Source: Pseudomonadota bacterium
Lineage (GTDB): Bacteria > Pseudomonadota > Gammaproteobacteria > Burkholderiales > Rhodocyclaceae
DNA: 64,000 nt
Direction of reading: 5' to 3'
Assembly: GCA_018240785.1 (NCBI GenBank)
Contig: JAFEFC010000012.1
Span: 102,564-166,563, forward strand
Shown: piece after piece, positions 61,160-64,000 of the stretch
Layout: each line of letters opens with the position of its first letter
Position numbering within the stretch: position 1 is the first letter of the stretch
Position numbers and translations under genes: made by a program
Notes under the pieces: generated by a model
The model's input: the letters and a program-made list of their open reading frames with translations, nothing else
The model's database searches: none
Told to the model about the DNA's origin: nothing

Positions 61160-61744
61160 ATGCCACGTTCGACTCCCTCATTCGCGCGCCGTGTCGGCCT
61201 TGCATTCTCCGTGCTGTTCCAGCCCGAGCTCGCTGCCCGGCTCGAACAGCTTCGCAACCCGGAGGCGTCAGCACCCGCAGCCACCGCAGCAGCGACCGTA
61301 CCGTCCCCTGCCGTGGCCGTTGCTCCGGCCAACGCAAGCGCGGCAGCGCCGGTGCTGCGTGAAAGCTCGCCAGAAGCTGCGCTGCAGTTGCTCGGTCTGC
61401 TGCAGCGAGAGGCGCGCTTCGTCGACTTCGTCCAGGAAGACGTCGCAGCGTATTCCGACGCCGATGTCGGTGCCGCAGCGCGCGTGGTGCATGAAGGCTG
61501 CCGCAAGGTGTTGCGCGAGCATTTCAGCATCGAGCCGGTGCGCCCCGAAGCAGAGGGCAGCCGCGTGACGCTGGCCGAAGGCTTCGACGCCGCCTCCATC
61601 CGCCTGACCGGGAACGTGGTCGGCAGCCCCCCCTTCGCCGGCAGCCTCGGCCACCGCGGCTGGCGCGTCACCGACAGCCGCCTGCCGAAGCTGGCGCAAG
61701 GCCACGATGCCAGCGTGATTGCCCAGGCTGAGGTGGAACTGTGA
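61160..61744 (+). CDS. DUF2760-type protein encoded with Hsp70 homologues
   Basis: A 194-residue protein. The first 30 residues are amphipathic (FARRVGLAFSVLFQPEL). An Ala/Pro/Val-rich linker (about 33-66) follows, then a compact domain with LQLLGLLQREARFVDFVQED, AARVVHEGCRKVLREHF and the C-terminal HRGWRVTDSRLPKLAQGHD. This matches DUF2760, whose function is unknown. A TATATT at 61130-61135 may be its -10. Its stop overlaps the GTG start of the following Hsp70 gene, so the two are translationally coupled and probably act together. Confidence 0.82.
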   Translation: MPRSTPSFARRVGLAFSVLFQPELAARLEQLRNPEASAPAATAAATVPSPAVAVAPANASAAAPVLRESSPEAALQLLGLLQREARFVDFVQEDVAAYSDADVGAAARVVHEGCRKVLREHFSIEPVRPEAEGSRVTLAEGFDAASIRLTGNVVGSPPFAGSLGHRGWRVTDSRLPKLAQGHDASVIAQAEVEL

Positions 61745-63630
61745 GCGCAGTAGACGACAGCGCACGCTACGCGATCGGCATCGATCTGGGCACCACGCAC
61801 TGCGCGCTGTCTTACGTCGACATCGGCAACAGCGATGGCGAAAGGGCCGAGCAGCGCATCCTCGTCATTCCCCAGCTCACCGCGCCGGGCACCGTGGAGG
61901 CCCGCGAGCTGCTGCCCTCGTTCCTCTATCTGCCGCACGCCGACGAACTGGCCGAGGGCGACCTGCATCTGCCGTGGACCACGGAGCAAGACCACGCGGT
62001 GGGCGAATTCGCCCGCACGCGCGGCGCGGCGACACCGATCCGCCTCGTCGCCAGCGCCAAGAGCTGGCTGTGCCATCCGGGCGTGGACCGTCGCGCAGGC
62101 ATCCTGCCCGCCGATGCGCCCGAAGAGGTCGTCCGCATCTCGCCGCTGGAGGCCTCGACGCGCTACCTGTCCCACCTGCGCGACGCGTGGAACGCTGCGC
62201 AACCGGATGCGCCCTTCGAGCAGCAGGACGTCACCATCACGATTCCCGCGTCCTTCGACCCCGCCGCGCGCGAACTCACCGCGGAGGCTGCGCAGGCAGC
62301 CGGCTATCCGCGCATCACGCTGCTCGAGGAACCGCAGGCGGCGCTGTATAGCTGGATCCAGCGCAGCGCCGGCCAGTGGCGCAGGGAAGTGAAGCCGGGC
62401 GACCTGATCCTGGTGATCGACATCGGCGGCGGCACCACCGACCTGTCCCTGATCGCGGTCCTCGAGCGCGACGGCAATCTCGAGCTTCACCGCCTCGCGG
62501 TCGGCGATCACATCCTGCTCGGCGGCGACAACATGGATCTGGCGCTCGCCTACGGCGTGACGCGCAAGCTCGCGACGCAGGGCACGCGACTCGATCCGTG
62601 GCAGACGCGGGCGCTCGCCCATGCCTGCCGTGCCGCGAAGGAGGCGCTGCTGAGCGATGCGTCCCTCGACAGCGTGCCGGTGGTCGTGCCCAGCCGCGGC
62701 TCGAAGCTGATCGGCGGTTCCATCCGTACCGAAGTCAGCCGCGCCGAGCTCAGCGCAAGCCTGCTCGACGGCTTCTTCCCGCAAGCGGCCGTCAGCGAAC
62801 AGCCGCAGAGCCGCGCGCGCGGCGCGCTCACCCAGCTTGGCCTGCCTTTTGCGCAGGACGCCGCCATCACCCGCCATCTGGCAGCCTTCCTGACCCGCCA
62901 GCTCGGCGCCGCGAACGAACTGGAGGGCTTCGCGGAATCGGCCGAGGGCAGTTTCCTGCATCCGACGGCGGTGTTGTTCAACGGCGGCGTGCTCAAGTCC
63001 GCGCTGATCGCCGAGCGCGTGCTGGAGGTGCTCAACGGCTGGCTGGCGGCCGACGGCGTCGCACCCGCGCGCCTGCTCAGCGGCGCCGATCTCGATCTCG
63101 CCGTCGCCCGCGGCGCCGCCTATTACGGCTACGCACGGCGCGGACGCGGGGTCCGCATCCGCGGCGGTACGGCACGCGCGTACTACGTTGGCGTGGAGTC
63201 GGCGATGCCGGCGATCCCGGGCATGGAGCCGCCGCTCGAGGCGCTGTGCGTCGCGCCCTTCGGCATGGAGGAAGGCACCGAGGCCGCCCTGCCGGCGCAG
63301 GAGTTCGGCCTCGTCGTCGGCGAGCCGGTGCGCTTCCGCTTCTTCGGCTCCTCGGTCAGGCGGCACGACCAGGTCGGCACCCTGCTCGACTTCTGGACGC
63401 CGGACGAGCTACAGGAACTCGAGGAGATCGAAGCCACGCTGCCGGCGCAAGGCCGCAAGCCGGGCGACATCGTGCGCGTCCGTCTGCACGCACGCGTGAC
63501 CGAAGCCGGCACGCTGGAACTCGAAGCCCTGCCGGTGGGCGGGGATGAGCGCTGGAAGGTGCAGTTCGACGTGCGCGGCGACGCCGGTGCGGTCGACGCC
63601 GCGCTGGCGGAAACCGTCGAACAGGGCTGA
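61741..63630 (+). CDS. Divergent Hsp70-family protein (first of a tandem pair)
   Basis: A 629-residue actin-like ATPase of the Hsp70 superfamily. Phosphate-1 GIDLGTTHCALSYVD is at 13-27, phosphate-2 VIDIGGGTTDLS at 225-236, and the adenosine motif FNGGVLKSALIAERV at 413-427. The region after about 470 does not show the DnaK substrate-binding signature and lacks the EEVD-like or lid tail, so it is not a standard chaperone. A motif ASAKSWLCHPGVDR (104-117) is shared with the next gene. The start is a GTG overlapping the DUF2760 stop. Function unknown. Confidence 0.88.
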   Translation: MSAVDDSARYAIGIDLGTTHCALSYVDIGNSDGERAEQRILVIPQLTAPGTVEARELLPSFLYLPHADELAEGDLHLPWTTEQDHAVGEFARTRGAATPIRLVASAKSWLCHPGVDRRAGILPADAPEEVVRISPLEASTRYLSHLRDAWNAAQPDAPFEQQDVTITIPASFDPAARELTAEAAQAAGYPRITLLEEPQAALYSWIQRSAGQWRREVKPGDLILVIDIGGGTTDLSLIAVLERDGNLELHRLAVGDHILLGGDNMDLALAYGVTRKLATQGTRLDPWQTRALAHACRAAKEALLSDASLDSVPVVVPSRGSKLIGGSIRTEVSRAELSASLLDGFFPQAAVSEQPQSRARGALTQLGLPFAQDAAITRHLAAFLTRQLGAANELEGFAESAEGSFLHPTAVLFNGGVLKSALIAERVLEVLNGWLAADGVAPARLLSGADLDLAVARGAAYYGYARRGRGVRIRGGTARAYYVGVESAMPAIPGMEPPLEALCVAPFGMEEGTEAALPAQEFGLVVGEPVRFRFFGSSVRRHDQVGTLLDFWTPDELQELEEIEATLPAQGRKPGDIVRVRLHARVTEAGTLELEALPVGGDERWKVQFDVRGDAGAVDAALAETVEQG

Positions 63631-63643
63631 TCCGAAGGACACC

Positions 63644-64000
63644 GTGAGCCGCTACACGGTCGGCATCGACCTCGGCACCAGCAACACCGTCGTCGCCTTC
63701 GCCCGCGCGGGCGACGACCGCATCGAGCTGCTGCCCATCGAACAGTTGGTCGGCCGCGGCCAGGTGGCGGCGCGCGCGCTGCTGCCTTCGGTGCGCTATC
63801 ACCTTGCGTCAAACGAGATCGACGCCAGCAGCTTCGCCCTGCCCTGGCAGGCCGATGTGGGCGGCGAGCCGGTGGCCTCGGTCATAGGCGCTTTCGCTCG
63901 CGAGGTCGGCGCCCAGGTCCCGGGACGCGTGGTAGCCAGCGCCAAGAGCTGGCTGTCACACGCCGGTGTGGATCGGGGCGCAGCCATCCTGCCGTGGGGC
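63644..64000 (+). CDS. Second Hsp70-family protein, truncated by the window edge
   Basis: Opens with GTG at 63644, preceded by AAGGA, 13 bases after the first Hsp70 stop. It runs open to the last base (119 codons). The visible part has phosphate-1 GIDLGTSNTVVAFARAG and the motif ASAKSWLSHAGVDRGAAILP, the same as in its neighbour, so the two are paralogues. The remaining ATPase and C-terminal region lies outside the window. By analogy with known loci it may be the DUF3731-bearing type, but this cannot be seen here. Confidence 0.85.
   Translation, partial: MSRYTVGIDLGTSNTVVAFARAGDDRIELLPIEQLVGRGQVAARALLPSVRYHLASNEIDASSFALPWQADVGGEPVASVIGAFAREVGAQVPGRVVASAKSWLSHAGVDRGAAILPWG

What the first reader, a model, noticed from the sequence alone, without database searches (positions are those of the whole stretch)
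61160..64000. DUF2760 - Hsp70 - Hsp70 cluster: a possible undescribed chaperone-like system
Three genes are tightly coupled (a stop/GTG overlap, then a 13-base gap). The two Hsp70-like ATPases keep all nucleotide-binding motifs visible, but the complete one lacks a recognisable DnaK substrate-binding domain. Both share an unusual ASAKSWL-x-H-x-GVDR-x-A-x-ILP motif in the ATPase half. Two different ATPase paralogues next to a small protein of unknown function suggest a dedicated hetero-Hsp70 machine.
Basis: partly seen in the sequence, partly recalled or inferred. Interest (0 to 1): 0.7.

Follow-up and report, generated by a model that had tools for sequence, protein, structure and literature searches.

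The report
Three-gene paired-Hsp70 module with DUF2760
Three bacterial genes that almost always travel together encode two unusual relatives of the chaperone Hsp70 and a small protein that looks membrane-anchored in some relatives, so they probably form one dedicated, still undescribed protein-handling machine.

Summary
Observation confirmed. The gene cut by the window edge is intact: HspB has 926 codons and ends in a DUF3731 domain. DUF2760-HspA-HspB is a strict module. In three overlapping genome samples, 85 of the 88 genomes with DUF2760 or DUF3731 have both; 83 of the 85 have them on one contig and strand, 3.7-7.1 kb apart, the other two on separate contigs. HspA (E up to 1e-80) occurs in exactly the 22 of 299 genomes with DUF2760. 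No neighbour family recurs in more than 16 of 93 loci. The 'unusual motif' is the segment of the Hsp70 catalytic lysine. An HspB model shows a DnaK-like ATPase and beta substrate domain, with DUF3731 where the lid would be. DUF2760 has no J-domain HPD in 91 sequences; its N-terminus looks like membrane helices in several lineages but not in the window's. Best reading: a dedicated hetero-Hsp70 machine placed by DUF2760. Interaction, activity and client are untested. Searches of open papers found neither DUF name.

The parts
61160..61744 (+). DUF2760 protein, 194 aa, first gene of the module
   Evidence: PF10816 E 6e-56, residues 71-193
61160..61258 (+). N-terminal segment of DUF2760 (residues 1-33, two helices in the model); in some other lineages this part looks like one or two membrane helices
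   Evidence: in the window itself not a membrane helix by hydropathy
61259..61369 (+). low-complexity Ala/Pro-rich tether (residues 34-70)
   Evidence: 72% of the letters from residue 36 to the domain are A, P, V, E or K
61370..61738 (+). DUF2760 domain (residues 71-193)
   Evidence: conserved in alignments A1 and A2
61741..61744 (+). 4-base stop/start overlap (GTGA) of DUF2760 and HspA
   Evidence: same overlap length in 71 of 80 named relatives
61741..63630 (+). HspA, 629 aa, Hsp70-like ATPase with a C-terminal region homologous to the beta domain of HspB, and no lid
62050..62109 (+). HspA ASAKSWL...ILP motif = DnaK K70 catalytic-lysine segment
   Evidence: K at the DnaK K70 column in 80 of 80 HspA aligned
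63631..63643 (+). 13-base gap between HspA and HspB
63644..64000 (+). HspB, first 119 codons; the gene continues outside the window to 66424 in window numbering (L006:6208-8988, 926 aa), with DUF3731 at its C-terminus
63935..63994 (+). HspB copy of the catalytic-lysine motif
   Evidence: K in 74 of 74 HspB aligned

Best explanation
The three genes encode one dedicated hetero-Hsp70 machine. Shown by sequence: HspA and HspB are two old, separate Hsp70-type ATPases that keep the nucleotide and catalytic residues, and they are inherited together with DUF2760 in one gene order. Predicted: HspB has a DnaK-like ATPase domain and beta substrate domain, with the helical DUF3731 domain where the lid would be; HspA is taken by homology to have the same two domains and no lid. 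Inferred: DUF2760 is the docking subunit that brings the pair to a fixed place or client. It is built as N-terminal segment, flexible tether, small domain; in several lineages the first part looks like one or two inner-membrane helices followed by positive residues, so the domain would face the cytoplasm and the pair would work at the membrane. Inferred: the pair uses ATP to bind and release, or to remodel, a client, HspA and HspB probably acting as a heterodimer. The client is unknown. For the window's own lineage the membrane step is the weakest: no membrane helix is predicted there.
Against: No binding, ATPase or localisation evidence exists here. In the 80 named DUF2760 no 19-residue Kyte-Doolittle mean exceeds 1.68; the two f21 genomes (0.9) and the Thiodictyon copy (1.15) lack a clear helix too; the window's maximum is 1.11 and lies in the Ala-rich tether, not in the N-terminal segment, whose helix is not more amphipathic than shuffles (24% reach it). 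The DUF2760 model is weak (pLDDT 71.5, pTM 0.47) and matches no solved fold. Co-inheritance fits equally a chaperone pair dedicated to DUF2760 as client. A Thiodictyon plasmid has DUF2760 and HspA without HspB in the stretch read, and one Accumulibacter MAG (G580) shows no DUF3731. Five of the 22 HspA matches are flagged with one in-frame stop; their open frames are 611-631 codons, so these are probably end stops, but this was checked only for G030 and G026.
Confidence: 0.5

Rival explanations
1. DUF2760 is not a subunit but the dedicated client: HspA and HspB are specialised chaperones that fold or insert DUF2760, much as HscA serves IscU (analogy recalled).
For: Strict co-inheritance and translational coupling fit a client as well as a cofactor; DUF2760 seems to have membrane helices in some lineages and would need help.
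Against: Two large ATPases for one protein of about 180-230 aa is costly; the domain is highly conserved (25 invariant of about 123 positions in 19 rows), which suggests an interface or activity of its own.
Confidence: 0.2
2. HspB is an Hsp110-like nucleotide-exchange partner of HspA (compatible with the main reading): an Hsp70 relative with an enlarged helical C-terminus that binds the HspA ATPase domain.
For: Two Hsp70 paralogues with different C-termini in a fixed pair; Hsp110 structures are among the matches; the DnaK R167 position is R in 66 of 74 HspB but T in 71 of 80 HspA, so the two are not interchangeable.
Confidence: 0.25
3. The pair is a filament-forming or regulatory actin-fold ATPase rather than a chaperone.
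For: Weak MreB/Mbl profile matches, below the curated cut-off; no canonical lid.
Against: The HspB model superposes on DnaK through the beta substrate domain, and the 50 rows shown are all Hsp70 or Hsp110 types.
Confidence: 0.1
4. The module is an anti-phage defence system.
For: Weak PADLOC match to PDC-M61B in the ATPase domain only (E 9.2e-5 and 8.3e-4); one copy sits among defence-annotated genes on a Thiodictyon plasmid; patchy distribution (9 of 154 genera).
Against: In family f17 it is in 63 of 96 genomes over 6 of 13 genera, more like a resident trait; neighbour families are not shared beyond 16 of 93 loci. Neighbourhoods were not scored for defence genes.
Confidence: 0.05

Closest known systems
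DnaK/Hsp70 (with BiP, HscA)
   Same: ATPase domain with phosphate-loop, K70, E171, T199 and adenosine-loop positions kept; beta substrate domain in the HspB model
   Different: HspA far below the curated cut-offs for DnaK and HscA; by eye no VLLLD-like linker, GG-(S/T)-A-R there instead; N170 column is E in all rows; lid absent or replaced by DUF3731; the genome has its own DnaK, HscA and a YegD-like gene (names by recall)
Eukaryotic Hsp110/Sse1-Hsp70 pair
   Same: Two unlike Hsp70 relatives, one with an enlarged C-terminus
   Different: In the tree HspA and HspB lie together, apart from DnaK and HscA (96/100; no Hsp110 was in the tree); nucleotide exchange untested; bacterial, with a small third gene
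Cyanobacterial membrane-associated DnaK (recalled; one paper seen in a search listing only, PMC4297356)
   Same: An Hsp70 working at a membrane
   Different: There, as recalled, a single DnaK paralogue; here two Hsp70s and a separate, possibly anchored protein
Vibrio cholerae VC1375-1374-1373
   Same: Very probably the same module: the published 22-base HapR site of VC1375 is found in 1 of 296 family genomes (G815), about 330 bases upstream of a DUF2760 gene that is followed by HspA and HspB
   Different: What I found in print is regulation only: HapR activates the VC1375 promoter in vivo and in vitro (PMC10328515, section 6 read), and entries in expression tables

Membership tests
Hsp70 superfamily | Actin-like ATPase domain with phosphate loops and catalytic lysine | tested here: met
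   PF00012 over cut-off for HspA and HspB; catalytic columns conserved in 80 HspA and 74 HspB
Hsp70 superfamily | Beta substrate-binding domain, in HspB | tested here: met
Hsp70 superfamily | Beta substrate-binding domain, in HspA | tested here: inconclusive
   Not modelled; homology to HspB in 11 of 20 matches reaches the end of the HspA profile; its C-terminus alone has no sequence match to solved chains
Hsp70 superfamily | Helical lid (SBD-alpha) | tested here: inconclusive
   HspA ends after the beta region; HspB has DUF3731 there, whose fold could not be searched alone; by sequence it matches no solved chain below E 0.23
DnaK (TIGR02350/PRK00290) | Curated family cut-off | tested here: not met
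   HspA 45.8 bits against 822.55, and 49.4 against 648; HspB was run only as its 119-aa fragment
HscA (TIGR01991/PRK05183) | Curated family cut-off | tested here: not met
   HspA 78.3 bits against 708.55, and 83.1 against 620; HspB fragment 20.5 against 620
YegD (PRK11678; name recalled) | Curated family cut-off | tested here: not met
   HspA 25.3 bits against 331
DnaK | R167 and N170 both kept (their role in J-domain docking is recalled) | tested here: not met
   N170 column is E in 80 of 80 and 74 of 74; R167 column T in 71 of 80 HspA but R in 66 of 74 HspB. The linker column D393 could not be aligned reliably
J-domain co-chaperone (for DUF2760) | HPD tripeptide | tested here: not met
   Absent in 91 of 91 DUF2760 proteins
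GrpE-like exchange factor (for DUF2760) | GrpE fold | tested here: inconclusive
   No solved fold matched, but the model is weak
Hsp110 | Nucleotide exchange on a partner Hsp70 | not testable with these tools
   -

The most novel reading that the evidence does not exclude
A self-contained, membrane-tethered hetero-Hsp70 machine that has given up the J-protein/GrpE cycle: two obligately paired Hsp70s, one lidless and one with a new helical domain in place of the lid, run by a dedicated docking subunit (DUF2760) instead of a J-protein.
Probability: 0.25. Interest if true: 0.85.

Novelty: new variant of a known kind. Interest (0 to 1): 0.62.

Why it matters
Bacterial Hsp70s are known (recalled) as single ATPases served by J-proteins and GrpE. 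A widespread, nearly inseparable three-gene module with two unlike Hsp70s and a private partner would be a second design for the Hsp70 cycle in bacteria. It is in 63 of 96 sampled genomes of one family and in many named betaproteobacteria such as Massilia, Duganella, Paraburkholderia, Caballeronia and Thauera, yet neither DUF2760 nor DUF3731 is named in the open papers searched. It gives a direct experimental handle: three proteins, one operon, clear mutants.

Tried and rejected
HspA-HspB fusion: one genome (G455, L151) showed a 1530-codon frame holding both. Rejected: the junction is a run of N, read as X, and DUF3731 lies in two frames there. It is an assembly gap, not a fusion.

Mobile element: of 14 pattern matches in viral contigs none encodes a relative. 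Of eleven plasmid records seven are over 1.3 Mb; two Bradyrhizobium copies are on conjugative plasmids. Rejected as the general explanation, noted as a route of spread.

HapR site upstream in six f17 loci fetched first: best matches have 8-9 mismatches, no better than shuffles. So quorum-sensing control is not shown to be general; with up to one mismatch the site was found only in G815 among 296 genomes.

Fourth subunit in the neighbourhood: all-against-all of flanking ORFs gave no family in more than 16 of 93 loci. ORFs of at least 90 aa were picked mechanically and flanks differ in length, so short genes can be missed.

Amphipathic helix in the window's DUF2760: not different from shuffles.

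HspB as one clade: not obtained (one clade in 6% of bootstrap trees; long branches).

Literature: DUF2760, DUF3731, Pfam accessions and 'DnaK-related protein', VC1373-1375, general Hsp70 terms. No functional study found in this open library; most subscription papers are not covered. VC1374 is listed among in-biofilm-repressed genes, operon VC1373-1375 (PMC9201469, passages only); VC1374 is lowered in a polymyxin/vc1639 table (PMC5636140, passage); VC1373 is lowered in a riboflavin/iron table (PMC5816637, passage). PMC9608740 was a false hit (strain name). PMC6413534 and PMC3706606 name a 'DnaK-related protein' in tables (passages); not tied to this family. PMC9934648 (preprint of PMC10328515) and PMC4943939 were seen in listings only.
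Full report
What is there. The window ends inside a three-gene operon. DUF2760 (61160-61744, 194 aa) overlaps HspA (61741-63630, 629 aa) by four bases, and HspB starts at GTG 63644. The window lies at G000:C3:102564-166563. Reading on in the same contig, HspB is an intact 926-codon gene with a C-terminal DUF3731 domain. A tRNA-Met gene on the other strand lies upstream (60891-60967).

Is it a module? Pfam DUF2760 is found in 22 of 299 Pseudomonadota genomes and DUF3731 in 21, all 21 among the 22. A profile of HspA (A4, the window's copy and 29 of 80 named loci) with a limit of E 1e-80 finds exactly the same 22 genomes. 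Five of these 22 HspA matches are flagged with one in-frame stop; open frames there are 611-631 codons, and the two that I looked at (G030, G026) are open over 628-632 codons. In 300 genomes of the same order the counts are 15 and 14, shared 14. In 96 genomes of family f17 they are 63 and 64, shared 63. The samples overlap; in their union 87 have DUF2760, 86 have DUF3731 and 85 both. In 83 of the 85 the two lie on one contig and strand, DUF3731 always downstream, 3716-7078 bases away; in the other two (G053, G444) they are on different contigs. Of the three genomes with only one, G026 and G325 have HspA ending within 82 and 8 bases of a contig end, and G653, with DUF3731 alone, is an assembly of about 790 contigs. 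Genomes are related, so these counts are not independent events. None of the 14 control genomes has either domain.

Named relatives. HspA is next to DUF2760 in 80 of 80; HspB follows wherever the contig is long enough to show it, except in L074, L107, L108 and L118 (L107 and L118 have under 3 kb left after HspA). For these four, DUF3731 was sought in the whole genome: found elsewhere in G579 (Comamonas, about 22 kb on), G581 and G582 (Accumulibacter, other contigs), not in G580. The 4-base DUF2760/HspA overlap is found in 71 of 80; 67 of 71 HspA/HspB gaps are between -4 and +35 bases. In L090 HspB is split between frames. In G082 an antiporter-like and a porin-like gene (named from recall of the translations) lie between HspA and HspB, and both Hsp70s are kept. 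Clustering of neighbouring ORFs found no family in more than 16 of 93 loci. The module thus seems complete with three genes.

The two ATPases. In an alignment of 80 HspA and 74 HspB (complete genes only: HspA over 590 aa, HspB over 880 aa; 75 and 69 of them from the 80 named loci) with the genome's own DnaK and HscA, the positions of DnaK D8, G10, T11, K70, E171, D194, G196-198, T199, D201 and G228-229 are unchanged in every row, apart from one HspB row that is gapped at its start. Other DnaK positions differ: N170 is E in all rows, R167 is T in 71 of 80 HspA but R in 66 of 74 HspB. That these contact J-domains is recalled. Alignment around the DnaK linker is not reliable; by eye the VLLLD-like linker is absent and both proteins have GG-(S/T)-A-R there. 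A tree of 15 HspA, 15 HspB, DnaK, HscA and a YegD-like protein holds HspA together (100/99) and puts the module's Hsp70s apart from the other three (96/100). HspB comes out as one clade in only 6% of bootstrap trees; branches are long. The genome also has DnaK, HscA, a YegD-like gene and an MreB-like gene (names partly by recall), so the pair is additional.

DUF2760. The domain itself is well conserved (mean column identity 63% in 19 rows), has no HPD tripeptide in 91 proteins, and a weak model (pLDDT 71.5; 50 rows) without a solved match. The striking point is the part before it. In two Bradyrhizobium plasmid copies, in seven f36 genomes, in G325 and in G455 it is strongly hydrophobic (best Kyte-Doolittle 19-residue mean 2.1-3.0), by eye in two stretches; in the eight f17 sequences read there is one such stretch (1.9-2.2), followed by V-E-K repeats; lysines and arginines follow the last stretch in most. 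In the 80 named relatives, nearly all betaproteobacterial, the segment is shorter and only moderately hydrophobic (highest mean 1.68), followed by an A/P/V/E/K-rich stretch (median 72% of letters, against 37% in the domain). The two f21 genomes (0.9) and the Thiodictyon copy (1.15) also lack a clear helix. In the window the highest mean (1.11) lies in the Ala-rich tether itself, and the N-terminal helix is not significantly amphipathic. The layout (N-terminal segment, tether, domain) is kept while its letters change. I read this as an anchor where helices are present; in the window's lineage it may be a docking helix, a peripheral anchor or neither.

A link to published data. A study of HapR binding lists a site between VC1375 and VC1376 of Vibrio cholerae (PMC10328515, passages). 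That exact 22-base site occurs in 1 of 296 genomes of family f17 (G815), about 330 bases before a DUF2760 gene with a hydrophobic helix, then HspA and HspB. So VC1375-1374-1373 is very probably this module, and its promoter is activated by the quorum-sensing regulator HapR in vivo and in vitro (section 6 of that paper read). Another study lists VC1373-1375 as one operon, with VC1374 hit once in a screen for genes repressed in biofilms (PMC9201469, passages). The site was not found upstream in six other f17 genomes, so this control is not shown to be general.

Mechanism. I commit to a dedicated hetero-Hsp70 machine placed by DUF2760, at the membrane in at least several lineages, remodelling an unknown client. 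Shown: gene linkage, co-inheritance, intact catalytic residues. Predicted: ATPase plus beta domain in HspB; membrane helices in some DUF2760. Inferred: complex formation, heterodimer, docking by DUF2760, independence of J-proteins. Main rival: DUF2760 as client. An Hsp110-like role of HspB is compatible.

Novelty. The parts are Hsp70 relatives, so this is a variant of a known kind; HspA fails the curated tests for DnaK, HscA and YegD. I found no functional description in the open library. Both domains have Pfam entries, and public records carry names such as 'DUF2760 domain-containing protein' and 'hsp70 family protein', so the genes are known; the system is not described as far as seen.

Noticed in passing
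L006:9063-9326 (66499-66762 in window numbering, outside the window): An 87-aa ORF after HspB, no Pfam match; its conservation was not tested, as the neighbour clustering took ORFs of at least 90 aa.
   Followed up: partly
L006:9944-12376: An 810-aa ORF with three SdrD_B-like stretches (adhesin-like), near the contig end.
   Followed up: no
L134 and L135: Bradyrhizobium copies lie on conjugative plasmids, one next to trb transfer genes, one about 1 kb before groES-groEL.
   Followed up: no
L133 (Thiodictyon plasmid pTs485): DUF2760 and HspA without HspB in the 24 kb read, beside genes annotated as anti-phage.
   Followed up: partly
L151:5469-10058: Apparent HspA-HspB fusion caused by a run of N in the assembly; DUF3731 also lies in two frames.
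   Followed up: yes
L159:2-1486: In G815 the divergent neighbour of DUF2760 reads, by eye, as a membrane protein with a GGDEF domain, sharing the intergenic region with the HapR site.
   Followed up: no
window 52819-54216, - strand: ORF that reads as a serine/threonine kinase with a cyclic-nucleotide-binding-like C-terminus (by eye, no search).
   Followed up: no
L101: A record titled Chitinophaga pinensis MAG carries a copy close to betaproteobacterial ones; probably contamination or a wrong label (not tested).
   Followed up: no
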